Source: Paracyclopina nana
Taxonomy: Eukaryota; Arthropoda; Copepoda; Cyclopoida; Cyclopettidae
Assembly (NCBI GenBank): GCA_019096065.1
Contig: JAGUCH010000004.1
Span: 1-64,000, forward strand
DNA: 64,000 nt
Direction of reading: 5' to 3'
The notes under the pieces are model-generated. The model worked only from the letters and a program-made list of their open reading frames with translations, searched no databases and was not told the DNA's origin. Shown here piece by piece: positions 14,362-47,891 of this stretch; position 1 is the first letter of the stretch; every line of letters starts with the position of its first letter. A program made the translations under genes and the position numbers.

Positions 14362-15452
14362 GATGTGACTGAAAATGGGAAACAAAAATTAAACTTTTTT
14401 TTTGCCTTTTTTTTGGCAACTTGTCAGCGATTCAAAGGAAAGCCAAAATGTGACCTCATTTTCACTGACATCAAGGATACCGAAAAAAAGCTCCAGAAAA
14501 CGGCTTGAATAAGATCAATTCAGATGAAATTAAGTTGATCAATTCTGGTCACTTTAAATTATTTCATGAAAATGAACTAAATGAATTTTGGTTGGTTTGA
14601 ATTTCAATATCCTTAAAGTATTCAAAAGTTTCAGACCTTACCTTTAATTTTCTAGGCTGCTGCACTTGAAAACTCTATTCTTCTTATTAAGTACTCTTCT
14701 CCGGATTTTCCAGAATTCCCAACTTGAAATTCGTGGAAAATTTCAGCAGCCACCTTGTGTTATTTCTTCAAGTTGACAGATCGACTGAGAGCCACTATCT
14801 TTTGAAAAGATCTCAAGAATACTCAAAAATAAACTACATTCAACTTCGAGAGGTAATTATTTAGAAAATTATTATTTCACCTACCAAAGAAGAAGCTTTA
14901 ATTGTCCATGGTTTGGATTCTTCACTGGAAAAGAAACTAAAACAGTGCTTTTCAGATGCCTTAGAATTGATTAGTCAATTCTGCGCAACCTTGACCACGG
15001 AGAGCGCCATTCGAAACGTCAAAATGTTCAGACATTGCAATTTTTCAGGTTTTCCTTGTAAAAAATGGCTTCTTTTCGCAGTTTTGCAGCGCAGATATTG
15101 CAGATAGCAATATCAAGTTAACACCTCCTCATTTGGCGAAAAAATCAATCAGACCAAAAGTTCAAGCCTGTGCCGCAAATTCTAAGGCAAACCTTTTAAA
15201 TAAGCAACACCTTATCTATCTTAACTTAATCATTTAAAAAATGATTAAATTCAAGGCAAACGTAAAATTCATGGTTTCATAATTTTAAAACTTTTGAGCT
15301 CAAAAAAGCGCTATTTTAAACCAATCAATTCTGAAAGTAATGCGAGCCCGACTCTTTTTTCCGAGCCATTTTTCTTTTACTGTCAACAAATTCTTGTGTC
15401 ACGTCATCTGAGCTTTTCGAAAGTCAAATTTCAAAAAAAAGAGCTTTTGAAG
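14362..15452. other. Divergent intergenic region OGDH / ZFPL1
   Basis: Separates the OGDH start (minus strand) from the ZFPL1 start (plus strand) and must hold both promoters. The OGDH side shows a 3' splice site at about 14369, implying an untranslated first exon further upstream that I cannot place. No TATA box, repeat or conserved ORF is evident. Confidence 0.5.
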
Positions 15453-29782: not shown

Positions 29783-30088
29783 TGTTGTCTTAACGCAGAG
29801 CTGGCGGAAAGACCTTCGAAGGCCGACCTCGGAAGGCCGCGAGCGGCGGTGATGATGGCGGATCTCGGCGATGTGGCGGCGATCACGATGGCTCCGGGTC
29901 GGCGATGATGAGATATCACGAAATAAAGTGCAAAGTCAGGGAAATGCGGTGTAGTGTCGTTTATTCAGACTTTTCGCGAGAAAATCTAAATAACAACTAA
30001 CTGTCATTTGTTATGATATATACAGCTATTTGTTTACAATCGGAACTTACAGGTTATGCAAAACGCAACCTCCCGAATATATAATACA
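29783..30088 (-). repeat. BEL/Pao 3' LTR
   Basis: 306 bp, the same length and apparently the same sequence as 47586-47891. Includes AATAAA on the minus strand (TTTATT near 29960) as the likely poly(A) signal. Confidence 0.95.
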
Positions 30089-30224
30089 GTCCCCCTGTTA
30101 AGTTTTGGCTTATTCGAGTTTGTAAACGATCGTGATATGTCAGATGTGGTTATGCTTTGCTAAGTTGTCATTTTCTACAATAAACGTGCGCTCAGTGGTT
30201 TTGTTAAAACATACAATGAATTTA

Positions 30225-33200
30225 TTAGCGTTGGCCGATTTGCTTGAATTCGAAAGTTGACCCGCGCTTTGCCATTTTCAGCCTCAGGTCCTTATCCAGG
30301 GTCATGATCGTCATGGAGTGCATGTGGGCGACGATTCTTCTCAGCACGTGTAGCTGGACGAGGTTGAACTTCTCGTGGTCCCTTGGTCGGTGGCCGAGTT
30401 GACCACATTCTTCGCATCTCTCCAGCGCCATTGGGCAGGCTCCCAACGTGTGGTCATTACCGAGACAAGTTGGATTTGTACATCCTTCTTTACGGTTGCA
30501 GTCTTCGGTCTTGTGCCCGTTGTAGCCGCACACGTTGCAGGGGTGAGGTGTCTCGACAGCGTAAGATTTCCTCACATCCTTGAATGGCAACAGTATTGCT
30601 GTCACTCTGTCCTGGTAGGTGTCGATCTCGGTTTGATCCATCCAATGGTTGATTGAGCTGCCGACCTCGCATTCCCATTGTGTGACGTCCGAATCGCTGA
30701 CCATGTTGATCACGCTTCTGTCAAAGGCAAATTCCAATCCAAATTTTGCAAAGTTGTCGCACGCTTCCCTGTGGTTATTATAATAGTGGTAGGTGTGCAC
30801 CAGAGGCCTCAGCGATCGCTCGTCAGCCTCCTCCGGACTACTAGGATCCAGTAGGAGGCCTTCGAAGTATCGCACGGTTTTGCCACCAATCTCGATTGGC
30901 CGATGAAGATATGTTGCCGCCAGATACATCATCAATCCTCTCACGCAGCTATCCTTGCTCATGCCATTCTGCAGGGCCAACTTTGCTGCTGTGAATTCCA
31001 ACAGTGCCAGTGGAACAAACTGATCCTCTCGGTCGTAGTACAGAGTGCTAGGAAGGTACTTGTCCACGGCCATTGCTCTGTGCTCCTTCTTCCAAAATGG
31101 GGCCTTGATTGTTGTTTTGACTCCCAACAACTTTATTGCAGCATTTTTCGACGACGGTGGTTGCTGCTTATCCCAGGCTGGATTGAGGAGTATCACGAGA
31201 TGGCGAGCATCCATCCAGCTTCTGATTTTGATTCCAATCCTGGCGAATTTTGGCAGGTCTTCATAGACACTGAATCCCAGCTTGACAATTGATTCGTCCT
31301 CCAACATTTGCTTTATCTTTATCGGTATCTCCTTCCCTAGCAAGCTGTGGCCAACATACATGACTCTGACTCCCGCTGCGACTCCATTGGTTGCCCCGAA
31401 GTGGGCATATGCAAACGTGTTGCTCTCCTGGCCGACGGTGACGGGTTTCTGGCAGTGATATGTGACCTTGTAGCTTTCTGAGAGGCCCTCGGTGTCGAAG
31501 GTCATAATCCTCGTTTTCTTTATCTCCTGATAAAATTCGTTCCTTTCGAGCATAATGTCGAACTCTTCAGGGTGCTCGGTGCAGTACTCGCTCTCCGTGT
31601 CCTCCACCAATCCATACATGAAGGTTTTTCCCCTTCCAGCCGTCTCCAGGTCATAGACTGTATTCTTGCTCATCTTGGCCCTCTTCAACGCATTTGCCAC
31701 CGACAAATAGGGGTAAGTTCCTTTTTTCCGATTGACACAGTCTTTTTCCTGGAAAGGAGCCGAAGCTTGGCAGAGTAATCTCTCGCACTTCTTACCCTGG
31801 TATTTTTCAAGGTCGACCGGTCCGTACATTGCTCCTGCGACTGTCTCTGGGCATCCATCCTTTTGGGCTCGTTTTACATCTTTGTCGAATCCAGGCACGT
31901 CAATCTCCTTTGAGGGCAGCTTCAGAGTCAGTGCTCTCAGATCGCAATAAGGTTCATCACCAAAGTTGAGCTCTGTCAGTCGTTCTGCTGCGATCTCATC
32001 CTCCATTCCCGCTGGGATGTAGGTGGTGTGCTCCGATGGGGCTGTTGATGAGACTCTGGATGACCTCGGCTCGCTCTTTGCTTCTTCGACCTCCATTGGC
32101 TCCTGCTCGCTTGTGCCAGCCGGGCTACTAGGACCCAGTCCGGCACTCGCGTGCTTTTGGGCCTCCTTGTCGGTCTGGCACTCGGCTTGCATCAACTCCG
32201 GTGCTGCCTGGGCTTCATTGTCCTTCACGATCACGATTTGATGGTTTCTTCCAGCTGCTTCGTTGGTGATGCGCACCAGTTCCAGCATTTTCTGCTCCGT
32301 TTCTTCGGTGTAAAAGCGGATTCCTTTCGGCAGCTTCGCGATGTCTTGAATTTGCTGCTCTGTCATTAATTCGCCGGTCCTCGCCAGATAGATTTTTCCC
32401 TCCATTGGTCCAGTCTGCATCACCTTTATCATGGTTGGCAATGAGGCTGCCCCTTTTCCTTGTTCTAGGGCCACGAAAATCTCCTCGTCGGACATTCTGT
32501 GGTCCCAGCTCTGCTTGATGATCCCCTCCAAAATCTTCCTCTGTTGCTCGAACTGGAGCTGATCGATTGGCTGCAGCATGGCCATTTGGGGTATCTCGCC
32601 GTACTTGTCGATCAATTTTGCCATTTGGGGTCCGTGGGAGATGGCCATGGCAAAGTTTGGTGTGACCGGCATTGACATCATCTGGGCGCGTCTCAAGGCT
32701 TTAAATTGGTCGCATCTTTGGGACTTGTACCTCTGCTTCTGCGTTCTCTTATCGTCTTCTGCTCGTGGGCCGAAATTGAAGGTCGTGCCTAAGATCAAGG
32801 TCCCTGGGTCCAAGTAGTGCTCGGTGAACACCTCCCTGAGCTCTTCTAGATTGTTGTCGTTATAAATGATAATTTTTGATACCTTGATCTTCTTTGCCCA
32901 AGCTGACCTGACGCTCTCGATGTCGAATGGTGTGCCCTGGATGAGGTCGATTTTCCATGGCTCATTGTCGTCGCCTTCCACTACCACTCTCCTTGCTGGA
33001 GATGATCCGCCGAGCACAATTTGCTCAGTCGTATCATTCAAGCTCGAGGTGGACGAATCCAGAGGCTTTGCTGCCTTTGCTTTCTTGTCCGCGGACTTCG
33101 ATGTTCCTGGCTGCGGGGAAAGCGGGGTCGATTGCCGTGTTGGTGGTCCTAGTCTTGACCTCACGTCCTTCTTGTCCTTCTCGATCTTTGGGGTCACCGC

Positions 33201-33656
33201 CTTTCGCTCCGTCGATGCTTGGATTTCGCGGTTTCGTTTGATCGCATTTTCTTCCTCTTCGGTCTTCGGTTTTTTCGACGCGGTGCTGCGAGATCTATCG
33301 CGATCCTTATCGCGGCCTCGATCGCGGTCTCGGTCGCGGTCTCTACTGCGGTCACGCTTGCTTTTACGATCGGACATCTTTTTCTTTGTTTTGAACACCG
33401 CTGCTGCTAAGTCGAATTCGCCGGAAACGGTTCGAAAATTTAACCCGGTTTTGTTTGACGAGTTTTGTTTTTTCATTCTTACTGTTTCCGTTAGGTTGCG
33501 CGAGTACATGTAAAATTTGCGTTTTATTGCTCGATATATTGCATAGATATTACTCAGAATCATTATTTTCTTTTCCCGTGGTCGTGGTTGTGGTTGTGGT
33601 TGTGGTTGTGATTGTGATTGTGGTTGTGGTTGTGGTTGTGGTTGGTGGTTGGCCAT
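30225..33656 (-). CDS. BEL/Pao accessory ORF with DEDDy exonuclease domain and zinc knuckles
   Basis: An ORF of 1143 codons between the pol stop (33680) and the 3' LTR, where BEL elements have nothing or an env-like gene. First ATG 33656; a second candidate at 33377 (MSDRKSKRDRSRDRDRDR). Layout: Gln-Pro repeats (residues 4-25), RS/RD-rich basic segment (94-125), long middle region of unknown fold, 3'-5' exonuclease-like domain, C-terminal zinc knuckles. Exo I is FDTEG (D721, E723), Exo II is KLGFSVYEDLPKF (D800), Exo III is YDREDQF (Y874, D878), as in RNase D/WRN-type DEDDy nucleases. Knuckles: CNVCGYNGHKTEDC from 1040, then a C-x4-C-x4-H-x4-C variant and CEECGQLGHRPRDH. All catalytic positions are present, so activity is plausible. 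Role unknown: cDNA or RNA trimming, RNA binding or anti-silencing are guesses. Confidence 0.85.
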   Translation of the reverse strand: MANHQPQPQPQPQSQSQPQPQPQPRPREKKIMILSNIYAIYRAIKRKFYMYSRNLTETVRMKKQNSSNKTGLNFRTVSGEFDLAAAVFKTKKKMSDRKSKRDRSRDRDRDRDRGRDKDRDRSRSTASKKPKTEEEENAIKRNREIQASTERKAVTPKIEKDKKDVRSRLGPPTRQSTPLSPQPGTSKSADKKAKAAKPLDSSTSSLNDTTEQIVLGGSSPARRVVVEGDDNEPWKIDLIQGTPFDIESVRSAWAKKIKVSKIIIYNDNNLEELREVFTEHYLDPGTLILGTTFNFGPRAEDDKRTQKQRYKSQRCDQFKALRRAQMMSMPVTPNFAMAISHGPQMAKLIDKYGEIPQMAMLQPIDQLQFEQQRKILEGIIKQSWDHRMSDEEIFVALEQGKGAASLPTMIKVMQTGPMEGKIYLARTGELMTEQQIQDIAKLPKGIRFYTEETEQKMLELVRITNEAAGRNHQIVIVKDNEAQAAPELMQAECQTDKEAQKHASAGLGPSSPAGTSEQEPMEVEEAKSEPRSSRVSSTAPSEHTTYIPAGMEDEIAAERLTELNFGDEPYCDLRALTLKLPSKEIDVPGFDKDVKRAQKDGCPETVAGAMYGPVDLEKYQGKKCERLLCQASAPFQEKDCVNRKKGTYPYLSVANALKRAKMSKNTVYDLETAGRGKTFMYGLVEDTESEYCTEHPEEFDIMLERNEFYQEIKKTRIMTFDTEGLSESYKVTYHCQKPVTVGQESNTFAYAHFGATNGVAAGVRVMYVGHSLLGKEIPIKIKQMLEDESIVKLGFSVYEDLPKFARIGIKIRSWMDARHLVILLNPAWDKQQPPSSKNAAIKLLGVKTTIKAPFWKKEHRAMAVDKYLPSTLYYDREDQFVPLALLEFTAAKLALQNGMSKDSCVRGLMMYLAATYLHRPIEIGGKTVRYFEGLLLDPSSPEEADERSLRPLVHTYHYYNNHREACDNFAKFGLEFAFDRSVINMVSDSDVTQWECEVGSSINHWMDQTEIDTYQDRVTAILLPFKDVRKSYAVETPHPCNVCGYNGHKTEDCNRKEGCTNPTCLGNDHTLGACPMALERCEECGQLGHRPRDHEKFNLVQLHVLRRIVAHMHSMTIMTLDKDLRLKMAKRGSTFEFKQIGQR

Positions 33657-33679: not shown

Positions 33680-35530
33680 TTAGTCTGTTTTTTCTGATAC
33701 TATTGGTAGGTGTTGTGTTGGGGCCAATTGTCTGATGCCCCGTTCTAATGTACCATTGCTTGTTTTGACCACCGCTGATCTGACCATTCCATCGCTGCTC
33801 TTGTATACTTTTGTCACAGTGCCCACCAACCACCGTGGCCTGTGTTTTTTGAGCAGATCCTCTTCTGTTACAACCACTCTATCTCCTACGCCGACGTTTT
33901 GATTAGCTCTTGTCCATTTGGCTCGCTTTTGTAGTTCTTGGACATAGTAGTCGACCCAGATGTCCTGATATTTTCTGATTCCTCTCGCCATGATTCTCAG
34001 CTCGGGCATGTACTCCGCTCCTTCTTCCACCGAGCTCACGTAGCCATTTCGTCCCACCAGCATATGATTGGGTGTCACCACGTCCAAGCCATCCTTGGTT
34101 TTTAAGATCGCTATTGGCCGGCTATTTATCAGATTTTCTGCTGCTGCCACCAGTGTTCTGAATTGTTCAAATTGCACCTCGCCGTGTTCGCAGTGTTGCA
34201 TTGCTCTTTTTGTGAGCTTTACAAATGCTTCGCTGAGGCCGTTTGCCTCGTGGTCTTTTGGTGCGTTGAATTTCCATTCCCTGATGTTATTGCTGGTTTT
34301 GAGTTGGACCCTGTTCCAATCCATCTCTGAGCTCGTGTAGATTTTGGCGTCTGGGATGGTGCCAGTTGAGGTCACGACAAGTTTGTCATTGTCCCTCTCT
34401 TTTTTGCTGATCTCAGTCATTTGGGTGCCTAATTGTCCAAAAGACCCCTCATTATCGCTGTAGACCGTATCGACGTTTCCTCTTCTGGAAGTGATTCTCT
34501 CCATGGCCATTATCAGTGACTCTGTGTTCCTGCTTATGGTGGCCTCAAGCGTCGCTACTTTGGTTTGCAGGCACACCGTCACCAGAACATATGCTTTCAC
34601 TCTTTGTCTTAGGAATTTTACCCAGTAAAAGCCAGTGAAGTCCATTGCCAACTTTTTGCAGGGTCGGATTTCTCTGAGGCTGAGCTCCTGCATTGGTCCC
34701 ATCAGTTGCTCGTATGGTTTCGAGTTTCTCCTTGTGCACAATGGGCACTGATTTGTGATATGATGTGCCACCTTTTTTACAAATGGGCCCCCGAAATGAT
34801 GCGTGAGCATTAGCCAGAATGTGTCGAACGCTGGGTGGTTTTCTGTCTTGTGTATGTACCATGTCATCATCAGGAAAGGCCATGTCTTTGTCATCAGTAT
34901 TGGGTACTTTCTTGATTCTTGCATTTCAGCCTGATTCACGCATCTCGTGCTTACCCTGATGATGCCTTCTCCGTCTATAAATGGGCAATACTTCGCAAGC
35001 TTCTTGTTTCTCCAGATTTTTGTTTTCTCGAAGGCTTCTACATCCTCCCTGAGTGCCAAGCTCTGGCCGTATATCATTAGATCTCTCACCACTGTGGCCA
35101 TCGCTTCATCTGGTATTAATTCGTCCTGTTTTTTCCCAAATCCTTTTGCTCGCGCCAGGGCTCTTGTCATCCTAGGCCACTGGGTTATTCTTCTCTCCAG
35201 TGTCAATCTCTTCATTTTTTGGAAAGTCACTGCGTGTATGTGTAGCCAGTTCTTGTCTGCCGTTTTTATTTTGTGGTCCAATACTTTCCCACATTGTGTG
35301 ACCCTGAGGCTGGTCGGACTATTGTCGTCCAATCCTGCCCATAGCTTGATCTCAAGCTCCTTCCCAAGCAGTTCATTTTGTGTTACTTTCAAGTCGAACT
35401 TTGGCCACTCTTGCTCGTCATCTTCCGTGAAAAATGGAGCACCCGTCCAATATGTTGGGTGGTTGATGATTTCTTCCGGTGTCCCCCCCCGTGAGGGCAG
35501 ATCAGCAGCGTTAACACTTGTCTTTATGTA
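33680..35530 (-). pseudogene. BEL/Pao pol, 3' part: integrase (cut off by Gypsy insertion)
   Basis: C-terminal part of the BEL polyprotein, open from the Gypsy junction at 35530 to the stop at 33680. Visible: end of the RNase H region (NAADLPSRGG), HHCC zinc-binding motif (THHFGGPF...HHITNQCPLC), integrase core D (AMDFTGF), D (VYSDNEGSF) and E (HEANGLSEAFVK), and the BEL-type C-terminal domain (KHRPRWLVGTVTKV). No frameshift or stop besides the insertion was seen. The accessory ORF begins 24 nt after this stop. Confidence 0.9.
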
Positions 35531-35535
35531 GTGCC

Positions 35536-35821
35536 TGTTATATCACGTTGAAACGTACTTCCCTATATTGACTCTCACGTGTAACCTACATAGCTAGATA
35601 CTCCCCTCTCGCGCGTGCATGCATTCATTCTTTCTGTCTCGCTTAAGCTTGCACTGAATTACACTCAGTACACATCTCGTATCAAAGTGGATACGTTCGC
35701 CTCGATCTGGTAAATCTCGGCGTAGTAGTGCTCACGGTTTCCTGGTACAAGACCAGGGATCCAACCGACGTAGCTCGAGTAGTAGTGCCTTAAGTGTCAC
35801 CCACGAGGTCGGGACCAACCA
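35536..35821 (+). repeat. Gypsy 5' LTR
   Basis: TGTTATATC...CAACCA. The TATA-like site reads TATCAAA (about 35690) here but TATAAAA in the 3' LTR, the only difference seen between the two. Confidence 0.9.
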
Positions 35822-36044
35822 TGGCGTCAGTTCTCAGTCTCTTTGCATAAGAGGCCCTTTCCTAGAAGAGGGAAGGTTTGAGAAGCAGCCGAAGAAGGTT
35901 AGTGAGTGGAAAATTTCCGCCACCCTTGGCAGCATCACGACAACAAAGTGTGAGAGGCAGCCGGAGAAGGTTTCGTGAGCGGAATTGTGAAAGTTCCGCC
36001 ACCCTTGGCAGCATCACAACAAAAAAAGTGTCAACAAAGTGTCC
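35822..36044 (+). promoter_or_regulatory. Gypsy leader with duplicated segment and possible splice donor
   Basis: The untranslated leader carries an imperfect tandem copy of a roughly 65-70 bp segment (CCGCCACCCTTGGCAGCATC occurs twice). GAAGAAG|GTTAGTGAG at 35897/35898 resembles a splice donor and could pair with the acceptor at 41554-41556 to make a subgenomic mRNA. Not proven. Confidence 0.4.
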
Positions 36045-39000
36045 ATGAGCCAGGACTCAATTAAAAGTGCTGGCGAAGAAGAGTGGCATACTGCAGATCA
36101 GAACGTATTTGCAGCACTTCAAAGGCAAGTGAAAGCCTTAGAAGAAGCCAAAGAAGAAGCGGAGGGCCCCGAAGATACGCTTTTGGCAGCCACAAATAGT
36201 GACGAGGACACATTTGACACAAGTGCGGTCAGAGCAAATTTAGCGATGACCGAGAAGGAGATTCCAACTGACTTGCAATTGGCAATCGGAAAGCTTTCCG
36301 AAGCCAGAGGTGCAAGAGCACTCGAGGACCTCACCAAACAAATACATAGTCTCAATGGGCACAAGAGTTGGTTGTCCAGGCACATGAATGCCGGAGAGAA
36401 GCTATGCGAGGCCCTGGAAAGGCAGAAGGACATTTCAGTTTCAGAAGCAAAAGAGCTCCAGAAGCTGAAACAAAAGTTGGTCGACCAGGAGAATAGCATC
36501 ATGCAGATTTTAAATAACCTGCCGGACGAGACCCGAGTCACTCAAGCTGACAAGGTCAAGGAGATGTTCGAGAGAAAGGATGCCCTGGAATTAAAAGCAC
36601 TGGCAATCACAGGCCGGTACGAAAAGGCCAATCCAACTGCAATATCGGCATCAAATGCACCGGCATCAGAGGACAGAAAAATTGTCAAGCCGGATGCAAA
36701 TTTGAAGCCGAAAACGCTGAAGACTGGTGCTACAGCCATTGAGCTGCAGGTTTTTTTGAGGACTTGGAAGACCTACGTTCAAGAGTCGGAGATCCAGAAG
36801 AAGTCCATCGATGCCCAGCACACTTACAGTCTGGTATTATTTGATGCCAATCTATCAGCCAAGATTTCAGCAAAGTTGAGTGCGGAATCGCCCCTTTTCA
36901 TACAAGATGAAAATGTGGGCACTCCTTGGATCCTTTCAATGGAGAGGATCGTAGTAAACGAGTTCCAGCTGGCGTTTCCATTGTCTAAGAGAAGACTGGA
37001 GTGCTTTCGTCACAAAAGTACAAACCCAAGCGAGCTGCATGGAACGAGTTGGGCTGCATTTGAGCTGAAATGCAAAGCAGCCGAGTTCGAGAGCATGGAC
37101 ATAGAGACGGTAATGAAGTACCTCTATATGAGCTCTCTAGCTAATAAAGCCTTACGGAAAGAGCTTATCAAGGCCGACAACTTAGCTGGCGGCAAAGCAA
37201 CGATGGATGAGCTCAAATCGGCTGGCAATATGTATGATGTTAATACAGCCACCGAAGAGGGTTACGAGAACCCTACCGTGAAGAAGGCTGGGCCTACTGC
37301 TTATCGCAAGAAAAAGGCCATGGGCTCGAATGCTGGGGCTGAGGCCGCAGGTTCAAGCCAGAAGAAGAAGCATGGAGGTTGCTTTGAATGCGGAAGTAAA
37401 GAGCACCTCCGACCAAATTGTCCGAAGGCACCAACCTGTCAATTTTGCAAGAAGAAGGGTCATGGGGCGGACAAATGCTTCAAGAAGAAAGGCAAGGGCG
37501 AGGGTGGCGAGAAGAAGCCGAACGGGAACCCGACGAAAGCCATTAAAAAATTCACAGTTAAGTTGCCTTTGAGTTTTGATTTTTCTAGCACGTTGGAGTG
37601 TAAAAACGCTATTGCTTGCAATGAGGCAATACGCATTATGAAAAAATCAAAAGATAGATACTCTCTGCCGTTCATTTTTCAGAGTCGCATCAAGAGGATG
37701 GAGGAAGATGACGGAGGGGCAGGGGTTATCAAGATGGCGAAGACCAAGAGCAGAAAAAAGAAGGAGATGCAGCAGAAGATCTCCAAGGCAGTGAGCGGGC
37801 TGCGGCCCTCATGCCTACCCAATGCTACCAGGGTCACGTCATCAAGGCCAACTCCCAAGGCCAAGCTATTATTTTGCCCTGAGGTAGGGTCTGCTTTCTC
37901 TACGTATTGCCTGCCAGATACTGGAGCAACCATTACTGTGGTTGATGAGAAAGTAGCAGCGGACATGGGGATGCCAATATATCCCAATCCGGAGACCGTC
38001 AGGAGCGTCGATGGCACCGAAGTGAAGACGAGCAGAACATGTGAGATTGCAATATCACGTGGCATGAAAGTGGTTGTAGTAACCAATGCAGTGGTCGCTT
38101 CACTTGGTGACGATGAAGAGGTGATTGTCGACTGGCAGACACTGGAGATATTAGGCGTGGTTGGCCTAAACATTAACTCCACGGCAATCGCAGCAACCAC
38201 AATGGATATGACTCTGGAGAGCTTGAAGCTCAAATATGCAGAGGTCTTTGCAGACAAGCTTGACAAAACCAGGTTTATGAAGGGTGAACCCATGAAGATC
38301 CACCTAGTGGATGGGGACATAAAACCTATGAGGATCTCTTCAACCAATGCCATACCGGTGCATCTCAAAGCAGCGGCGGATAAGTGCATTAAGGATTTGG
38401 AGGATGCCGACATTGTCAAGAAGCTGAAGCCAGGGGAGATGACAGACTGGACCTCTAGAGGTTTCTTTGTCATCAAGTCTGATGGCAAATCAGTCAGGTT
38501 GGTTACGGACTTCGTTCAGCTGAACAAGTACGTGAAGAGACCAACCCACCCCTTTACGTCTGCATTCCATTTGTTGAAGAGCATCCCTGCAAAGGCTCAG
38601 TGGTTTGTGGTCGGAGACTGTGCGCAGGGATACCACCAGATCAAGTTGGAAGAAAAGTCATCCTACTTGACTACATTTTTGCTACCACAGGGAAGATTCC
38701 GTTATGTGAGAGCTCCCATGGGGCTCACATCTTCCAGTGATGAGTGGTGCTGCAGGAGCGACATGATCATGACTGGCCTGAACGGAAAGGGAGTCAAATC
38801 GGTCGATGATGTCCTCATCTGGGGGGAAACAGAGCAGGAAGCCCTGCACAATCTGGATGTCCTCCTCAGCAACTGCAAAACCTATGGTGTCAGCTTATCA
38901 CCCAAAAAGCTGCACATGGGTGAACGTGTCAAGTTTGCTGGATTCATGGTCAGCAAGTTGAATGGTGTAGAACCACACGATGACAACTTGAAAGCAATCA

Positions 39001-41534
39001 GGGAGTACCCAAGGCCAGCCAACCAGTCGGATGTGCGAAGCTTTTTGGGATTGGCTCAAACTTTAGGAAGTTTCTTGCCTGATTTGGCCCACATGTCAGC
39101 TTCATTGAGGGAGCTAACCAAGGCCAAAGTTCAGTTTCAGTGGTTACCAAGACACGAAGAAGACTTCAACCAGCTGAAGAAGATCCTGACCGGACCTTTG
39201 TTGGTGAAGCATTTTGATGTCAACAAGACCACAGTGTTGACAACGGATGCCAGCAGGTTATATGGCATCGGCTACATTCTAACTCAGTATGACCCAAAAG
39301 ACCCGGACAGGAGCTACCTGATTACCTGTGGGTCCAAGGTAAACTCCGCTGCTGAGAAGAATTATGCAACTATTGAGCTGGAGTTGCTGGGAATAGTCTA
39401 TGGATGTGAGAAGAGCTCGCATTTTCTGCATGGCTGCCCAAAATTTTTGGTGAAGACTGACCACAAGCCTTTACTTGGTATTATGAATAAGGACATGGCA
39501 GAGATCACTAACTCCAGACTCTTGAGGCTTAGAGAGAGGCTACTACCGTTCAACTTCGATTTGGTCTACCTGGAGGGGAAGTTAAACTTCATTGCAGATG
39601 CCTTGTCAAGACATCCAATTAACTTCTCAGATGACCACCCAGACGCTGAAGAAGCAGAAACTTTGAAGAACTCAAAGATCAGCGTAATCTCAGCCCTCTC
39701 TGTCTCAGCACAAGAAGATCCGGCATTCCAAGAAATCCATGATGCAGCGAAAGCTGACAAGGAGTATCAGGATCTAATTGAGGCCATCCAGGAAGACCTT
39801 CATCATCATAAGAAGAAGGGCGTGGCCATTCATGCATTAAAGCTGGTGCCCCAAAACCTTTGGGGGCAGCTTTCGGTCCAAGATGGAATGGTTGTCATTG
39901 ATGGGAAACGTGTCTTCGTACCAAAGGAAGCACGTCCATTCATCTTGAGGACTCTTCATATTGCGCACCCTGGGCAAACGAAGAGCCTGGCTACGGCCAG
40001 ACAATTCTACTATTGGAGTGGTATGACCAAGGATATCAGACAATCAGTAGAAGAGTGCGAAATGTGCCAGAAGTACATGGCCTCTTTACCGCATGATGAA
40101 GAAGGCGAGAACATGGTACCAACGGCCCCAATGCAGAGTATTGCAATGGATTTGGGCCATCATGAAGGGGCAGACTATTTAATAGTTGTGGACACCTTCA
40201 GTGGTTGGCCTTGGATTTTCAAGATGGTAAGATACACTAGTGAGGAAATCATCAAGAAGTTGACGATCATTTTTGCCACATTTGGGTACCCGATCGTGAT
40301 GAGATCCGACAACGCTGGATGCTTCATCTCTCATGAAATAATTGAGTTTTGTAAAGAGCATGGCATTATCGCCACCACCAGCAGCCCCTATCACCACGAG
40401 TCCAATGGGACCGAGGAAGCTAGTGTGAAAAACATGCAAAGGCTGGTTATGAAAACCAAGACCCTAAGGGAGATGGATGTCGCTGTGCTGGAATTTCGAA
40501 ATCTGGCACGTGCTGACGCCAACTCCCCTGCGAAGATGTTTTTGGGCTGTCATTTGAGGACAAAATTACCAATCTTGTACGAGATGACAAAGCTTGAGAT
40601 GCCAGAACCCAGAGCTGAAAAGAAGCAATTGCCTAAGGAGATCATTCCAGATTTCAAGGTGGGGGAAAAAGTGCGCATGCAAAATGCGGTCACTAAGCTA
40701 TGGGAGGATGTTGTAGTAATCCTCGAAGTTCGGCATTCCAGTAGAAGCTACGTCATCAAAAATGATGATGGCGTGATAATTGTGAGGAATAAGCGCTTCT
40801 TACGCAAGCATAATGCGCAGGTGGCTGACCTCGATGCAAATGCATCTTTATGGCTAGTAATTGAAGCACCTCACTCAACGCCCAGCATCGAAAAAAATTG
40901 TCCCCCTGTAAATTGCACCTGGTCGGAGGTTCTTATGGGTTCAGGTCAAAGTACAACCAACAGCGCTGACAAAGCAAAGACCCAGGTTGTTGATGAGACC
41001 AGCCACACTGGTATTAGGCTAGCGGACATCGATATCATGGCTCCGCAAGGCTCCAGTGAGGAGGACAAGTCAGCTGCTGAGGCAACTGGCAGAGATGTCA
41101 TGCATTGGATCTTCTATGGAGTGGCCTTTTGCGCTTTGATGGCTTTGCTATGGATTGGACTGCGGTTCAGGAAATGGCGGAAGAAGGCCAGCGCGAGGAA
41201 AAGAGCCAGAGACTCACTGTTGATCATGCACTCCCAAGCTGCAAATGTGCAGCCACCGGTCTACCCCCAACAAGCCCCTGCCCCATATGGCTGTCCAGGC
41301 TATGCGTCACCCTATGTCACGCCCTTCGCCTCGACAATGTCCATCGCCCCGACCCCTCATCCGATGGTTTATCAACCTTTCCCAGGAGTTGTACAGAGCT
41401 TGCCAAACATGGCTTATGGAGCCTCCCCGCTGGGAAGTTCACCAACGGTTTCGCATCCTGACTCGCCCCCCTTGCAGGAGGAGGAGCAGAGACGGCGAAA
41501 TCGTCTCTTTGCCATCTCTTACAACAATATCTAA
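36045..41534 (+). CDS. Gypsy gag-pol polyprotein with C-terminal membrane extension
   Basis: One uninterrupted ORF of 1829 aa. Gag with two CCHC knuckles (CFECGSKEHLRPNC, CQFCKKKGHGADKC, around residue 450). Protease LPDTGATITVV (about 625). Reverse transcriptase with SVDDVLIWG instead of the usual Y/F-x-DD. RNase H (LTTDASRLYGIGYIL). Integrase zinc finger H...H...C..C (LHIAHPGQ, CEMCQKY) and core D (IAMDLG), D (RSDNAGCF), E (NGTEEASVK). After integrase about 200 extra residues follow, with a hydrophobic helix IFYGVAFCALMALLWIGL, a basic RFRKWRKKASARKRARD stop-transfer and a Pro/Tyr-rich tail. The start ATG 36045 lies just after an in-frame GTG. Confidence 0.93.
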   Translation: MSQDSIKSAGEEEWHTADQNVFAALQRQVKALEEAKEEAEGPEDTLLAATNSDEDTFDTSAVRANLAMTEKEIPTDLQLAIGKLSEARGARALEDLTKQIHSLNGHKSWLSRHMNAGEKLCEALERQKDISVSEAKELQKLKQKLVDQENSIMQILNNLPDETRVTQADKVKEMFERKDALELKALAITGRYEKANPTAISASNAPASEDRKIVKPDANLKPKTLKTGATAIELQVFLRTWKTYVQESEIQKKSIDAQHTYSLVLFDANLSAKISAKLSAESPLFIQDENVGTPWILSMERIVVNEFQLAFPLSKRRLECFRHKSTNPSELHGTSWAAFELKCKAAEFESMDIETVMKYLYMSSLANKALRKELIKADNLAGGKATMDELKSAGNMYDVNTATEEGYENPTVKKAGPTAYRKKKAMGSNAGAEAAGSSQKKKHGGCFECGSKEHLRPNCPKAPTCQFCKKKGHGADKCFKKKGKGEGGEKKPNGNPTKAIKKFTVKLPLSFDFSSTLECKNAIACNEAIRIMKKSKDRYSLPFIFQSRIKRMEEDDGGAGVIKMAKTKSRKKKEMQQKISKAVSGLRPSCLPNATRVTSSRPTPKAKLLFCPEVGSAFSTYCLPDTGATITVVDEKVAADMGMPIYPNPETVRSVDGTEVKTSRTCEIAISRGMKVVVVTNAVVASLGDDEEVIVDWQTLEILGVVGLNINSTAIAATTMDMTLESLKLKYAEVFADKLDKTRFMKGEPMKIHLVDGDIKPMRISSTNAIPVHLKAAADKCIKDLEDADIVKKLKPGEMTDWTSRGFFVIKSDGKSVRLVTDFVQLNKYVKRPTHPFTSAFHLLKSIPAKAQWFVVGDCAQGYHQIKLEEKSSYLTTFLLPQGRFRYVRAPMGLTSSSDEWCCRSDMIMTGLNGKGVKSVDDVLIWGETEQEALHNLDVLLSNCKTYGVSLSPKKLHMGERVKFAGFMVSKLNGVEPHDDNLKAIREYPRPANQSDVRSFLGLAQTLGSFLPDLAHMSASLRELTKAKVQFQWLPRHEEDFNQLKKILTGPLLVKHFDVNKTTVLTTDASRLYGIGYILTQYDPKDPDRSYLITCGSKVNSAAEKNYATIELELLGIVYGCEKSSHFLHGCPKFLVKTDHKPLLGIMNKDMAEITNSRLLRLRERLLPFNFDLVYLEGKLNFIADALSRHPINFSDDHPDAEEAETLKNSKISVISALSVSAQEDPAFQEIHDAAKADKEYQDLIEAIQEDLHHHKKKGVAIHALKLVPQNLWGQLSVQDGMVVIDGKRVFVPKEARPFILRTLHIAHPGQTKSLATARQFYYWSGMTKDIRQSVEECEMCQKYMASLPHDEEGENMVPTAPMQSIAMDLGHHEGADYLIVVDTFSGWPWIFKMVRYTSEEIIKKLTIIFATFGYPIVMRSDNAGCFISHEIIEFCKEHGIIATTSSPYHHESNGTEEASVKNMQRLVMKTKTLREMDVAVLEFRNLARADANSPAKMFLGCHLRTKLPILYEMTKLEMPEPRAEKKQLPKEIIPDFKVGEKVRMQNAVTKLWEDVVVILEVRHSSRSYVIKNDDGVIIVRNKRFLRKHNAQVADLDANASLWLVIEAPHSTPSIEKNCPPVNCTWSEVLMGSGQSTTNSADKAKTQVVDETSHTGIRLADIDIMAPQGSSEEDKSAAEATGRDVMHWIFYGVAFCALMALLWIGLRFRKWRKKASARKRARDSLLIMHSQAANVQPPVYPQQAPAPYGCPGYASPYVTPFASTMSIAPTPHPMVYQPFPGVVQSLPNMAYGASPLGSSPTVSHPDSPPLQEEEQRRRNRLFAISYNNI

Positions 41535-41558
41535 AGTGTTTTTCTCTGTGTTGCAGGC

Positions 41559-42332
41559 ATGTCAGAAGCCCGAGGTGACCGTTCCCCCATTGATTGGGAT
41601 CATCCCGATTGGGACCCCAACGCACCTGTAGATGAGCGCCTGATCGCACCAGCGCCACTCGATGTAGCCACCCTCAATGAGCTGGACGATGTAGCCAAGC
41701 TCAAAGCCGAATTGGCGAAGGCCAAGGAGGAAGTCTATGATGCCCAGTACAGGATCACCGAACTGGAGCATAATCTGGCTGAGGCCAACCAGGAGGTCAG
41801 GGACCTCATTTGGACGAAGGATGTGCTGCGTGCGGATTTGAAGCACCAGTACAATGGCTACAGGCGAATGCTGGACAAGATCTTCGACAACATCCACAAG
41901 GCCATGAACTCGCCTGGCAAGAAATGGAAGCGGACTCGGATTGTCCCCATGACACCCCTGAGGGTAGTTGTTGACGCCGATGGGGTCCGCAGAATCTCCA
42001 GACCGTGTTACGAGAACGCGGAATCTGCCAAGCATGATGGGTTCTCGGCCAGGGCCGGTAAGGCATATACCCGTCAAGGCATAATGCTGGAGGCCGAGCT
42101 CATTGGATTCGGTCAACTGGACAAGGCATGCAAATTGGATGATGGTTCCGAAGATGAAGCTTCCGTCACGAAGTCCGAGGTCATCAAGATCCTAGACTTG
42201 AAGCGTGACGAGTTGGCCAGAGATGATCGCCAGAAGTACGGCATTTTTGTAGCTGCAATGGTAGCTATTGGTGTTGGCATGTTCATATGGTGCACCAATG
42301 GAGGGGAGGTTGCTTTGACGACATCGCCTTGA
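41559..42332 (+). CDS. Gypsy third ORF: coiled-coil protein with C-terminal membrane helix
   Basis: 257 aa, starting 24 nt after the gag-pol stop. Its ATG follows a textbook 3' splice site (TTTTTCTCTGTGTTGCAG|GC, CAG at 41554-41556). I do not recognise the protein. Residues about 38-85 are heptad-like and charged (KLKAELAKAKEEVYDAQY). The C-terminus has one hydrophobic segment (YGIFVAAMVAIGVGMFIWC). There is no signal peptide, Cys-rich ectodomain or furin site as in true env. It occupies the env position and may be made from a spliced RNA. Confidence 0.8.
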   Translation: MSEARGDRSPIDWDHPDWDPNAPVDERLIAPAPLDVATLNELDDVAKLKAELAKAKEEVYDAQYRITELEHNLAEANQEVRDLIWTKDVLRADLKHQYNGYRRMLDKIFDNIHKAMNSPGKKWKRTRIVPMTPLRVVVDADGVRRISRPCYENAESAKHDGFSARAGKAYTRQGIMLEAELIGFGQLDKACKLDDGSEDEASVTKSEVIKILDLKRDELARDDRQKYGIFVAAMVAIGVGMFIWCTNGGEVALTTSP

Positions 42333-42569
42333 AAAGCAACATAGAGAAATGAAGACACTGGATCGGATGATGGAACTGAATTTTGATACGCTATGCATTT
42401 TTCCTATTTTTCTATTTCATTAGGTTTTTTATGCTCTTATCAAAATTCTCGCTTGCTAGGTATGTCATAAATCCTAGGCCCCAAAATTAGTGTAGTTCGA
42501 GGTCAATTGATAGGCTAATATGTTAGTGATTACAGCTACCCAGGGGTATCCGTACCCACTTGGGGGAGG
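42333..42569 (+). other. Gypsy 3' non-coding segment
   Basis: Non-coding stretch between the third ORF and the 3' LTR, ending in the polypurine tract TTGGGGGAGG. Confidence 0.6.
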
Positions 42570-42855
42570 TGTTATATCACGTTGAAACGTACTTCCCTAT
42601 ATTGACTCTCACGTGTAACCTACATAGCTAGATACTCCCCTCTCGCGCGTGCATGCATTCATTCTTTCTGTCTCGCTTAAGCTTGCACTGAATTACACTC
42701 AGTACACATCTCGTATAAAAGTGGATACGTTCGCCTCGATCTGGTAAATCTCGGCGTAGTAGTGCTCACGGTTTCCTGGTACAAGACCAGGGATCCAACC
42801 GACGTAGCTCGAGTAGTAGTGCCTTAAGTGTCACCCACGAGGTCGGGACCAACCA
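42570..42855 (+). repeat. Gypsy 3' LTR
   Basis: 286 bp copy of the 5' LTR, with an intact TATAAAA. Its outer edge is followed by TSD GTGCC and then BEL pol sequence. Confidence 0.95.
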
Positions 42856-45800
42856 GTGCCATCGATCGAGTCTGGTGGTGTCGCTGATCTCTATGGTTCT
42901 GTTCCTGATGAACACATCTCTTTCCACCCCTGGCTTTCTGATCCAGCAGAGCACCGGCTTATTATCTACCCAGTACCAGATGTCCTTCTCATTGATTTTG
43001 ATGATACTCGCCAATCTGTTTGCCAGCCTCGCTGCCATCAATGCTCCAGCTAGCTCTGCCTTTGGAATATTGAGTGATTTGGTTTTTTGGAGCTTTGTCT
43101 TGGTGGTGAGCAGTTGTAATGTCCCGGTTTCTTTGTCTTGGATCATGGCCGTGCAGCCAAATGCGGTGTCAGAGCCGTCGCTGCACATGATTAATCTTGG
43201 AATCGCCTGCAAGCTGATCGCTCTCCTTGGATATGTTATTTTTGCCGCGTCTGACATTTGATTTAGCCACTTCGCGAATTGCTTAATGGCCTTTTGCACC
43301 TTTTCATTTTTGAGGCTCTCTAAGTCTGTGTCCCACTTGATCTTGATCTCGCTCCCAGCTTGGCAGATCCATTGGAAGCACTGTCGTGCCGGGATCACAA
43401 ATGGGCTGATAATGCCCAGTGGATCGAATATTTTTGCAATTGTTTGCGCAATGGTTCTTTTCGTAATTTTTGTGATGTCTGGCCTTTCAAACTTGTATCC
43501 CAACGTGTCCTTGTCTGGGTTCCAGTCGAGCCCCAGTGTTGCGTGTGTGTAATCACCGTCATCTTCAGTCGTCATGATGGCCATTGACTTTTCTATGTCC
43601 TCTTTTGGTATGTTTTCCAATATCTCCGGCTCATTCGTGACAAATTTTCGTAATTCCATTCCGCAATCACTTAGAACGGCCTTTGCTTCCTCGATCACTC
43701 TTTTTGCTGTGTTTTTGTCCGGAAATGAGACCAGGAGATCATCCATGTAGATCCGGATGTTGTTTTTGAGTTCCTGTGATCCATATGTCGCTATGTGGTG
43801 CTTGATGACGAAATTTGCGACGCTTGGGGCTGCTCTCAGGCCAAATGGCCATCTTTTGAACTGGTATGCTACTCCATCCACCCATATCCTGAGGTACTTC
43901 CTTTGTTCTTCTGATGTCTCAATCATAAGAAACATTTTCTCGATGTCTGCAGCGGCAGCTACGTCACCCAACCTGAATTGTGTCAGCGTGTCGTATATGT
44001 CTGCCAAGAAGTTAGGTCCTGGGTATTGTTCGTCATTGATGCTCGTGCCGTCGAACTTTTGCTTTGCATTATAGACAAATCTGTATTTCGTGGTGAGGCT
44101 GGTTCTTTTTGGCACGCAGAAAAAGGGCATAAAGTATCCATTCTTTATTTCACTTTCTGGAACTTTTTCGATTATACCTCTTTCTTCGTACTCGTCCATG
44201 GTATTAAGTACTGCCTCCCAGACGTCGCTTTCTGCCTTCATTCCCACATCGATCCCTCTCTGAATTGCTTTGCATTGTTTCCAGTTATTTGGTAATTTTG
44301 GTGGGTTGTTCATGAATGGAATGTCGACTATGTATCGGCCACTCTCCGCTCTTCTGATGCTCTTTTTCATCATGTTTAGGGCTGTTTCTTCTGCCAGTGT
44401 TAGTCTTGGTTGTGCTTTTTCTCCTGGCTGGATTCCTAGGCCCTCAATTCCATTATTTCGTTCCATGAGATATTCCAAGGCATCATCATTGAGGGAGTCG
44501 CTCACATTCTTTTGGGACCATTCGTTGACCAGCATGCTGCTCTCCTCTCCACCTGATAAAGGGTGGTATAACATGGTCCACCCCAGAGGTGTTTTGCGCA
44601 CTAATGGTCCATCCTCCACCAAAATGTCTCTTAAGCTTTTCATTAGCCTGAGATTGTCGAATCCCAACAGCATCCTGACTGGTCCTTGTACTGGTGTTGG
44701 AAAATTGACGTCCTTTATTTGGGCATATGAGCTTTTTATCTCGTTTGGATCGATTGCTTCGATTGTGGTTGGCAGGCCGAACGTCCTTGTTTTCACTTCA
44801 TAACTCTTCTTTGATCCCACGGGCCTCATGTAGACTTTACTTTTGAGGGAGTCTCTTTTTATCCTTTTGTTGTTGCCCACCACATGCACCGTCATTGTCT
44901 CAGTTTTTCCTTCAAGATTTAGGGCTTTTTCGACCTCGGCATCATTGATTGTTACACTCGAGCCCTCATCCATCACCATATTAATTGCAATTGCTTCTTC
45001 GAAGTCTGGTGTTTTTGAGATTTCTACAGGTACTGTTCGCCATGACTTTGTCATAGCTCCAAAGAGGGCGACAACCTCCTCTGCATTTTTTCCTGCCTGT
45101 TGAGTCTCTGGCGTCGGGCTACTAGGACCCAATCCAACCAGTGCAACTCCATCGTCTTGTTTCTTCACTAGTTTTTCCACGTTCATGTTCAATTGTTGGA
45201 TGGAGGCCAGCAGTGCGGCGTTGATTTGACCTTCAGACGCGCTTCTCCTTTTTGGTCCGATATGGAGTTTTGGGTGGTGTTGATCACTTCCACACTTTGT
45301 GCACACAATTTTTGACTTGCATTTCTCCATCTTGTGCCGCCCCGCCACACATCGCTTGCAAAGCTTCGCTTCTTCAACTTTTGACAATATTTCTTTTAGT
45401 GGGTAGTCCCCCCATTTTGGGCAGTCTATGCCCTTGTGGCCATCTGTGTCGCACACGAAGCATGGTCCACCTCTATGGGCAAGAAATATTCCGTCTTCGT
45501 CGCTGTCGCTCTGGGAGTCTTCGTCCTCCGAGGCCGAGTATTCTTCTTCGGCTGCTGCAAGCACTTTTTCTGTCCTTGTTGACTTAAATTTGTTGTACTG
45601 CTTAAATGTGCTCCCCTGTCGTTTGGTATGCTCTTGCTTATCGACGGTGCCAGTTGTTATGCTTTTGAGTATGTTCTCTGCCTTGAGGCTGCTCATGTGC
45701 TCCTTTGTTCTCTCCCTCGCCCATGTGAAGAAGAGTCTCAGCGAGTTTTCTGATTGCCATCTTTGAGACTTGTAGTTCTTGTAATCTTTCTCTGTCTCTC

Positions 45801-47505
45801 TGTCCATCCTCAAGGTTGCCAGCACTTCATCCTCGCCGTTAAGTGGGTCTTTTCCTTGTTTGGCTTTTTGCACCAGGAGCTTGCTCACCAGATTTTGCAC
45901 GTCGTCAATTGTATTGGCGTTTCTGATTGACATTGGGGGCAATTGTCTCAGTTTTTCCAGTAGTGTCTGCACTAGTTCTTTTGCTTCGCCTGGCCAGTGG
46001 CCATAGTCTGTCTCCAGGGTGTCCAGTGCCGTGATGAACCCAGTGGCGTTGCAGTCGAAGTCGTAGATCTTAGCGAATGCCCTTCCTGATGTCCATTGTT
46101 TTAGGGTTGTCATCTTCTCGAACCAGTCCATGTTCCTTTTCATTACTATTTTTGCATGCACGAATTCGCGGAAGACCCTGTATTTGTCAGGATTTTCGCC
46201 GTCGAAGGTCATCTTGAAGTTGTCCCTGTAATTGTCGCGAGGCAGCGTTGGGTCGTAGTACTTGTCCAGGTCCTTCCTCTGGATCAAGTCTGCCCAGCAT
46301 GTGTCATCTCTGATGATTTGACGTGCTCTTTCAATTGGTGTGTTTTGTGCTAAGAACTTTTGTTCTTCTTTGCACCTGCTGTCGTATTCTTCTGGCTTGA
46401 TTGTTGTGCCCGCCATGTGGGGACCGAAGCTCGCGGGCATGAGCCCACTGTAGCTTTGTTGTCCCCCTGTTCCGTCCGGAGTTGGTGGCGGGACATATTG
46501 GAAGAATGCGCCACTCGCTCTCGATGTGGAATTGGCGATTGGCTGACACCATGTAGTTTGCATGAATTTTATTTCCTCCGCTGATTGCCTCGCTCCGCAC
46601 ACTATCGAAGCTGTGTTCACCTGGAGGTTGCCCCTCGCTATGGCATCCTTGATGTGTTTCTCTATGAGTTCTCTTGACTGCTCCCTCGCCTTGGCCTCCT
46701 CCATCAATCTCAGCCTCGCCTCCGTGGAAGCATCTCTGCCTTTTTTTGCGCAATCCTGCACTGCTTTGACTGCTTCTTCATGCCTCTTTATGAGCTCGTC
46801 AACCTCGGCCTGACTCCTGGGCGTCTCTGTTTGCTCCCCTTGGCCTTGTTGATCACTTGTCTCCTGTGGAGTCCCTGGTGGGCTTTTCTCCACGTCCTCT
46901 GCCCAATTCCTGGTGTACAGTGATCTATGCAGTCTCTGGGCTCTCTGTATCACTCGTCTGTAGTCCTGCAGCAGTGGTTGGACGTGGGTGGTCTTGAATT
47001 CAGCTGCCGCCGCTTGTGGGAGTACTCGCATCACTTCCGTCGCCGTGGTGGCAGCATCCTTCTGGAGTTGGACGAGTCGGCCCCAAATCGCTTTGGCCTC
47101 CTTTTCTCTCACTTCTGGCTTCGCTAGGTGGTTATCGATGTCTTTTAGCCCTTTTTTCCTGTCGTCCAGATCGTCCACCCAGTCACTGACCATCTCCTCT
47201 GGCGTGAGCGCCAGAAGGTCCTCCACTTGGCCGCCCGAGGCCATTGTTGAGTCCGTGACTGTTTCTGTGATGATCACTTCCTCCTCGTCTGACAGCTCCA
47301 GCCTCGAGGCCTCCACCGCCTGCGTGTAGTCCAGCAGTGATTGGTCCAAGTTTATTCTGGCCTGAAAGTCCTCGCTCAACTGTTGAGTTCTGTCAAGCCT
47401 GCTGTCCTTCTTTTTGATCTCCTTGCCGTATACCCAGTCCCCCAGTCTCAACGGGGCCTTGCGTTTTCGTGATGGGTACCGGTCCTCTTCGTCTTGCTTG
47501 GACAT
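42856..47505 (-). pseudogene. BEL/Pao gag-pol, 5' part: gag, protease, reverse transcriptase, RNase H (truncated by Gypsy)
   Basis: Open from ATG 47505 to the insertion site, about 1550 codons. Gag of the DUF1759 type (FREFVHAKIVMKRNMDWFEK). Three knuckles (CFVCDTDGHKGIDC, CKRCVAGRHKMEKC, CTKCGSDQHHPKLH). A protease-like site DEGSSVTI. Reverse transcriptase with IRIYMDDLLVSF. The Pao-type connection (IAKIFDPLGIISPFVIPARQ). RNase H (IMCSDGSDTAFGC) cut near its end. Beyond the junction the frame runs into the Gypsy LTR. Excluding the insertion and one TSD copy the frame continues at 35530, so the element was probably intact when hit. Confidence 0.93.
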
Positions 47506-47585
47506 TAGCTACCCGGGATCACCCAGTGTAGGGAATGTCAGCTGAGTCTCGAAATCTCCCGCGTGAATTTGCTAGTTGGGCGCCA

Positions 47586-47891
47586 TGTTGTCTTAACGCA
47601 GAGCTGGCGGAAAGACCTTCGAAGGCCGACCTCGGAAGGCCGCGAGCGGCGGTGATGATGGCGGATCTCGGCGATGTGGCGGCGATCACGATGGCTCCGG
47701 GTCGGCGATGATGAGATATCACGAAATAAAGTGCAAAGTCAGGGAAATGCGGTGTAGTGTCGTTTATTCAGACTTTTCGCGAGAAAATCTAAATAACAAC
47801 TAACTGTCATTTGTTATGATATATACAGCTATTTGTTTACAATCGGAACTTACAGGTTATGCAAAACGCAACCTCCCGAATATATAATACA
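47586..47891 (-). repeat. BEL/Pao 5' LTR
   Basis: 306 bp, with the tRNA-Lys-type primer-binding site adjoining at 47585-47575. Confidence 0.95.

What the first reader, a model, noticed from the sequence alone, without database searches (positions are those of the whole stretch)
30225..33656. A BEL/Pao retrotransposon encoding a DEDDy 3'-5' exonuclease-like protein with RS domain and zinc knuckles
Seen: a 1143-codon ORF between pol and the 3' LTR has Exo I FDTEG, Exo II KLGFSVYEDLPKF and Exo III YDREDQF in correct order and spacing (D721, E723, D800, Y874, D878), an RS/RD-rich N-terminal part and three C-terminal knuckles. Known: BEL/Pao elements normally encode gag-pol and sometimes env. Inference: a captured host nuclease fused to nucleic-acid binding parts, which may trim cDNA or RNA ends or counter host defence. 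I know of no described BEL element with this layout.
Basis: partly seen in the sequence, partly recalled or inferred. Interest (0 to 1): 0.9.

Follow-up and report, generated by a model that had tools for sequence, protein, structure and literature searches.

The report
Retrotransposon family carrying an RNase-D-like exonuclease
A family of animal jumping genes carries an extra gene for a protein that looks like a working 3'-end-trimming nuclease with nucleic-acid-binding parts, while sampled members of a sister family carry the same gene with its active site lost; related extra genes are known in rotifers, so this is a new variant rather than a new kind.

Summary
A BEL element (identical LTRs 29783-30088 and 47586-47891; minus strand) carries, between pol and its 3' LTR, an open frame whose five named catalytic residues (D721, E723, D800, Y874, D878) and twelve zinc-knuckle ligands are invariant in 27 of 27 aligned copies from the same genome, down to 25% identity. 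A family profile matches EXD2-like DEDDy exonucleases (97.9%, E 6.3e-13; reversed 2.0%, 30 shuffles at most 0.8%). Selection is purifying. It is no one-copy capture: 39 of 41 close integrase match rows have it downstream, and its distances track integrase distances (r 0.956, 21 elements). New here: a sister lineage keeps the protein without the active site in 15 of 15 sampled copies, and the closest pairs are constrained. DEDDy ORF3s are described in rotifer LTR retrotransposons (PMC5408684); my searches found none for BEL. This copy's pol is split by a nested Ty3/gypsy element. Most likely role: an RNP-associated 3'-5' exonuclease acting on the element's own nucleic acids; activity and substrate are inferred.

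The parts
29783..30088 (-). 3' LTR of the BEL element (306 bp, TG...CA)
   Evidence: identical to 47586-47891; 5-base target duplication CTTCC on both outer sides
30089..30098 (-). polypurine tract-like stretch (ACAGGGGGAC) before the 3' LTR
   Evidence: sequence read; label is mine
30225..33656 (-).
33267..33377 (-). RS/RD-rich N-terminal stretch after the conserved Met (residues 94-130)
32247..32966 (-). conserved middle domain (residues 231-470), no known relative found
   Evidence: alignment A1; low pN/pS; no match to the element's Gag
30942..31589 (-). DEDDy 3'-5' exonuclease-like domain (residues 690-905)
   Evidence: Pfam DNA_pol_A_exo1 in 16 of 27 copies at E<=1, best 1.3e-4; hhalign to EXD2-like family; fold model
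31485..31505 (-). Exo I, MTFDTEG with D721 and E723
   Evidence: invariant in 27 of 27 aligned copies
31245..31283 (-). Exo II, KLGFSVYEDLPKF with D800
   Evidence: D800 invariant in 27 of 27
31017..31040 (-). Exo III, YYDREDQF with Y874 and D878
   Evidence: invariant in 27 of 27
30375..30539 (-). three zinc knuckles (CCHC, CCHC, CCHH; residues 1040-1094)
   Evidence: all twelve ligands invariant in 27 of 27; same order as in the element's own Gag
   Evidence: alignment of 7 close copies; 16-base core occurs 7 times in the genome, each upstream of the conserved Met of a close ORF3 copy, 0 control matches
33680..35392 (-). 3' part of BEL pol: integrase (rve, below cut-off) and DUF5641
   Evidence: Pfam
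42766..47505 (-). 5' part of BEL gag-pol: DUF1759 (below cut-off), three zinc knuckles, RT, Peptidase_A17 (RNase H); its last codons run into the nested element
   Evidence: Pfam; knuckles; boundary
47586..47891 (-). 5' LTR of the BEL element; primer-binding-like TGGCGCCCAAC follows at 47575-47585 (label mine)
35536..42855 (+). nested Ty3/gypsy element that interrupts BEL pol (LTRs 35536-35821 and 42570-42855, 1 mismatch in 286)

Best explanation
ORF3 is a long-established accessory gene of a BEL/Pao clade. It encodes a nucleic-acid-binding protein (RS-rich start, conserved middle domain, three zinc knuckles) built around a DEDDy 3'-5' exonuclease domain related to EXD2/WRN/RNase D. Shown by sequence: its presence, recurrence, invariance of the active site in this lineage, purifying selection, co-inheritance with integrase, and a sister lineage with homologous parts but without the active site in the copies sampled. 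Inferred: the protein is made from a separate message or by re-initiation (its frame relative to pol differs between copies), sits on the element's RNA or cDNA through its knuckles, and trims 3' ends there with two metal ions (element RNA, or unpaired or mismatched 3' ends of cDNA). In the sister lineage the same protein would act by binding alone. Probability of the identity claim about 0.9; of own-nucleic-acid trimming as the main role about 0.4.
Against: No activity is shown. No relative outside this genome was found in the collections searched, so everything rests on one genome. The sampled sister-lineage copies do without the active site, so catalysis is not needed for whatever both lineages share. 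For the window copy alone Pfam stays below cut-off (E 0.062). The single-sequence fold model was worthless (pLDDT 37.6); the better one used exonucleases as its alignment, and EXD2 itself superposes poorly on it in Foldseek (TM 0.36-0.40, rmsd about 20). Synonymous sites are saturated in most pairs, and between distant groups the nominal omega rises to 0.24-0.41, which says little.
Confidence: 0.75

Rival explanations
1. Counter-silencing factor: ORF3 trims or destroys host small RNAs (piRNA or siRNA) or their precursors, as an element-borne counterpart of Nibbler/Mut-7-type DEDDy exonucleases.
For: Fold matches include Nibbler and Exd1 (their small-RNA roles are recalled, Nibbler's also seen in a reference title); the RS-rich start suggests nuclear location (inference); active and inactive lineages would fit an arms race.
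Against: Fold matches to NrnC, Klenow, WRN and RNase D are as good (rows within about 2 Z). Arms-race proteins usually evolve fast, yet the exonuclease part is a slow part. No small-RNA data.
Confidence: 0.25
2. Non-enzymatic nucleic-acid chaperone or particle protein: the exonuclease fold serves for binding only, and ORF3 acts like a second Gag-type nucleocapsid protein.
For: The sister lineage keeps the domain without the active site (15 of 15 sampled), the knuckles (in the two whole frames read) and constraint in the closest pairs; the knuckle order CCHC-CCHC-CCHH equals that of the element's Gag.
Against: In the window's own lineage all five catalytic residues are invariant in 27 of 27, hard to explain without catalysis. 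Zinc-knuckle similarity is no greater to BEL Gag than to the nested gypsy Gag (82.3 against 81.8).
Confidence: 0.2
3. Envelope-like or cell-exit role in the place of env.
For: Position between pol and 3' LTR, where env genes sit.
Against: No membrane segment is apparent on reading the protein; it is RS-rich, knuckle-bearing and nuclease-like. No dedicated membrane prediction was run.
Confidence: 0.03
4. A host gene or a one-copy capture that happens to lie in this element, or a chance motif match.
For: Pfam match of this copy alone is below cut-off.
Against: 39 of 41 close integrase rows carry it, co-inheritance r 0.956, invariance, profile match with controls.
Confidence: 0.02

Closest known systems
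DEDDy-type ORF3 of bdelloid rotifer LTR retrotransposons Juno and Vesta, and of Athena/Terminon Penelope-like elements (Rodriguez et al. 2017, PMC5408684; abstract and passages read)
   Same: RNase D-like DEDDy exonuclease encoded as ORF3 of an LTR retrotransposon; activity not demonstrated; the authors too suggest 3'-end processing of element RNAs. A Cys-His-Cys zinc motif is noted there in the Vesta2 and Vesta5 ORFs.
   Different: [quoted passage not shown] BEL is not among them); motif reported as changed to DEED; authors infer exchange between retroelement types, whereas here ORF3 and integrase are co-inherited; an RS stretch, three knuckles and an inactive sister lineage are not in the passages I read. 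Their sequences were not at hand for comparison.
EXD2 / WRN / RNase D / Nibbler (Mut-7) DEDDy exonucleases (Pfam PF01612)
   Same: Motif order, catalytic residues, predicted fold.
   Different: Remote (20% identity in the profile alignment), with a longer stretch between Exo I and Exo II and different flanking domains.
Maelstrom and EXD1 (inactive DEDD derivatives that keep RNA binding, as described in PMC5408684)
   Same: Model for the sister lineage: fold kept, active site lost.
   Different: Host proteins of the piRNA pathway, not element-borne.
BEL/Pao retrotransposons (PMC3118150, passages read)
   Same: gag-pol order, RNase H of the Peptidase_A17 type, integrase, LTRs; the 5-base duplication as typical is recalled.
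   Different: The passages read give gag-pol and, in few elements, env; 'exonuclease' occurs 0 times in that text.

Membership tests
DEDDy 3'-5' exonuclease (PF01612 clan) | Exo I D-X-E, Exo II D, Exo III Y-X3-D in order | tested here: met
   invariant in 27 of 27 aligned copies; the sister lineage does not meet it (0 of 15)
DEDDy 3'-5' exonuclease (PF01612 clan) | family profile match over the curated cut-off | tested here: inconclusive
   window copy below cut-off (13.5 of 23.6 bits); 4 related copies over it in the genome search
DEDDy 3'-5' exonuclease (PF01612 clan) | profile-profile homology over the whole domain | tested here: met
   hhalign 97.9%, E 6.3e-13, with reversed and shuffled controls
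DEDDy 3'-5' exonuclease (PF01612 clan) | RNase H-like exonuclease fold | tested here: inconclusive
   model fits, but its alignment consisted of family members (A5), so the test is partly circular
DEDDy 3'-5' exonuclease (PF01612 clan) | metal-dependent 3'-5' hydrolysis | not testable with these tools
   needs a bench assay
BEL/Pao LTR retrotransposon | gag-RT-RNase H(A17)-integrase order between LTRs | tested here: met
   Pfam hits and coordinates; rve and DUF1759 are below their cut-offs, Peptidase_A17, RVT_1 and DUF5641 above; aspartic protease got no Pfam match; pol interrupted by a nested element
BEL/Pao LTR retrotransposon | RT phylogeny inside BEL/Pao | not tested
   placed by Pfam families only
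Rotifer DEDDy ORF3 group (Juno/Vesta/Athena) | extra ORF besides gag and pol with a DEDDy domain | tested here: met
Rotifer DEDDy ORF3 group (Juno/Vesta/Athena) | closer to those ORF3s than to cellular DEDDy enzymes | not tested

The most novel reading that the evidence does not exclude
A BEL clade has carried its own nucleic-acid-bound 3'-5' exonuclease since its root, and has since split into catalytic and dead-enzyme lineages that live in one genome. In the catalytic lineage the enzyme serves the element in trans as a cDNA or RNA 3'-end corrector (a retroelement counterpart of viral proofreading exonucleases) or as an anti-small-RNA weapon, while the dead lineage does the shared task by binding alone.
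Probability: 0.3. Interest if true: 0.85.

Novelty: new variant of a known kind. Interest (0 to 1): 0.6.

Why it matters
Reverse transcriptases lack proofreading (recalled), and retroelements that bring their own 3'-5' exonuclease are little studied: the one paper found calls their catalytic activity yet to be demonstrated (PMC5408684). Here 27 open copies with an intact active site stand in one genome beside a sister lineage whose 15 sampled copies are open but lack it. That natural contrast makes the question 'what does an exonuclease do for a retrotransposon' directly testable, where the rotifer elements are described as scarce in full-length copies (same paper).

Tried and rejected
Chance motif match, one-copy capture and host gene: rejected. 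Gag as source of the middle domain: no signal (0.1%; the reversed Gag control scored higher, 7.0%). Gag as source of the knuckles: undecided, since BEL Gag and gypsy Gag score alike (82.3 and 81.8).

Led nowhere: protein database with residues 600-1143 of the window copy (4231 candidates, none) and with alignment A2 (8000 scored, none); viral contigs with one protein and with A3; solved structures with the single protein (3 rows at E 1.8 or worse, none an exonuclease); single-sequence fold. The scans of genome contigs, phages and plasmids were not used. The search of the genome with the sister-lineage protein L057 did not complete, so how many sister-lineage BEL elements carry ORF3, and whether some BEL elements lack it, is open; with the rows only 8 of 44 weaker integrase rows showed one downstream.

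Rows left out: of 28 ORF3 loci held (L001-L028, L001 being the window copy), L014 was left out of A1 (frame of 826 aa). About a dozen further first-lineage elements, several with stops, were not fetched, so their active sites were not checked. A2 and A3 drop L008, L018 and L019 (24 rows). The Mantel test used 21 of those 24, the ones with an upstream stretch at hand. For one search I gave the script all 85 integrase rows, 38 of 48 rows (second pieces of the same element left out) and 29 of 74 rows. The cut at 37% integrase identity was set after seeing the gap between 37% and 33%. The count 39 of 41 is of rows and includes the window itself; two rows belong to one element (C9:1351509 and C9:1352077); of the two misses one is a stop-ridden fragment and one has an ORF3 hit about 7 kb further on. 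The 15 sister-lineage copies are 15 of about 26 weak rows.

Host: not identified. One contig end shows CCTAA (TTAGG-type) arrays, which from memory points to an arthropod; weak.
Full report
What is there. The minus strand of the window carries a BEL element bounded by two identical 306-bp LTRs (29783-30088, 47586-47891) with a 5-base duplication CTTCC. Its gag-pol begins at 47505 (DUF1759, RT, Peptidase_A17) and is interrupted at 42855 by a nested Ty3/gypsy element (35536-42855, LTRs differing at 1 of 286 sites, duplication GTGCC). Integrase and DUF5641 lie at 35392-33680. This copy's pol is therefore split; without the insert the element would be about 10.8 kb. Between pol and the 3' LTR lies ORF3.

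Is it a gene of the element? Yes. 39 of 41 close integrase match rows have an ORF3 match downstream on the same strand (rows and limits under Tried and rejected). The 15 upstream stretches fetched for distant copies all show BEL RT and integrase. Distances between integrases and between exonuclease domains correlate at 0.956 over 21 elements (0 of 2000 permutations). Selection: in the young pair L017/L018 (dS 0.08) omega is 0.087; in the other nine pairs detailed, pN in the exonuclease part is 0.045-0.099 while pS is 0.68-0.91, mostly saturated; the N-terminal part is looser (omega 0.10-0.40). Between distant groups nominal omega is 0.24-0.41 among the rows printed, with dS saturated.

The sister lineage. 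A search with a distant copy's exonuclease domain returned 74 rows; besides the first lineage about 26 weak rows remain, 14 of them in open frames of 961-1105 aa (my count). I read two whole frames (L057, L058) and 13 further exonuclease pieces. The family profile finds homology over the middle domain, exonuclease domain and knuckles of L057 and L058 and over the exonuclease domain of all 15 (E 1.6e-8 or better for this small set). BEL integrase lies upstream of L057 and L058 (26-28% identity) and, by the pairing, of L066, L067, L070 and L071; for the other nine it was not tested. None of 15 keeps the active site: the D721 place is never D, E723 is kept in 2 (L068, L069), the D800 place is D in 4 and E in 10, Y874 is kept in 10, and the D878 place is D in 1 (L065) and E in 1 (counts depend on the alignment of a diverged region). 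So an acidic residue at Exo II mostly stays while the Exo I pair and the last Asp are gone. The 13 pieces are open throughout (366-367 codons), and the five closest pairs have pN 0.13-0.24 against pS 0.74-0.82, more distant pairs pN 0.35-0.50 against 0.71-0.84, so the inactive form looks maintained. Against the EXD2-like family the sister lineage scores 92.6% (reversed 0.2%), against A3 99.9% (reversed A3 0.1%). Since cellular relatives have the active site, loss in the sister lineage is the simpler direction (inference).

Expression. The frame of ORF3 relative to pol differs between copies (same frame after a stop in L002 and L003, another frame in the window), which argues against a conserved read-through and for a separate message or re-initiation (inference). 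A block of about 120 nt upstream of 33377 is conserved among 7 close copies; its 16-base core occurs 7 times in the genome, in 7 of the 8 close copies and nowhere else, with no control matches. The block lies in the longer open frame, so coding conservation is not excluded.

How it most likely works. The knuckles and basic RS stretch put the protein on nucleic acid; the catalytic lineage would trim 3' ends there. Which ends is not shown. Trimming of the element's own RNA or cDNA is my first choice (0.4), small-RNA trimming against silencing second (0.25), binding alone third (0.2).

What is known. Rodriguez et al. 2017 (PMC5408684; abstract and passages read) describe DEDDy ORF3s in Juno and Vesta LTR retrotransposons of bdelloid rotifers and in Athena elements, with 3'-end processing of element RNAs as one suggestion and a Cys-His-Cys motif in two of them; PMC6338049 (passages) lists a DnaQ-like exonuclease among accessory domains of LTR elements. 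The BEL/Pao survey PMC3118150 does not contain the word exonuclease (passages). Searches for BEL, Pao or Belpaoviridae together with exonuclease terms gave no paper that I could see to describe such a BEL element (listings, and passages of PMC3985635, PMC11599104 and PMC5603734). So: a known kind of accessory gene in an element class where I found none in print, with a new twist (co-inheritance and an inactive sister lineage).

Noticed in passing
33378-33500 (-): Block just upstream of the probable ORF3 start is conserved between copies whose synonymous sites are saturated elsewhere; might be a splice acceptor, leader or other RNA signal, or coding sequence.
   Followed up: partly
35536-42855 (+): Nested young Ty3/gypsy element with an apparent membrane segment near the end of its pol frame and an extra 257-aa ORF (41559-42332) that also ends in an apparent membrane segment (read by eye).
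   Followed up: no
L057 (G000:C4:74000-77800): An ORF3 of the inactive sister lineage lies only about 10 kb beyond the window's end.
   Followed up: yes
L052, L053, L055, L056 (contig ends): Contig ends carry CCTAA (TTAGG-type, L053) or GGCCA/TGGCC pentamer arrays (L052, L055, L056); the second is unusual (as printed).
   Followed up: no
52931-54192 (-): Two adjacent ORFs look like a THAP-type DNA-binding part and a DDE transposase (by eye, recalled).
   Followed up: no
50504-52465 (-): HSP70-like gene in one open frame; ORFs at about 1600-14400 look like pieces of an oxoglutarate dehydrogenase gene with satellite-like repeats between them (by eye; repeats).
   Followed up: no
L029-L033, L035: The host has its own set of DEDDy exonuclease genes; none looks close to ORF3 (no direct comparison with each was run).
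   Followed up: partly
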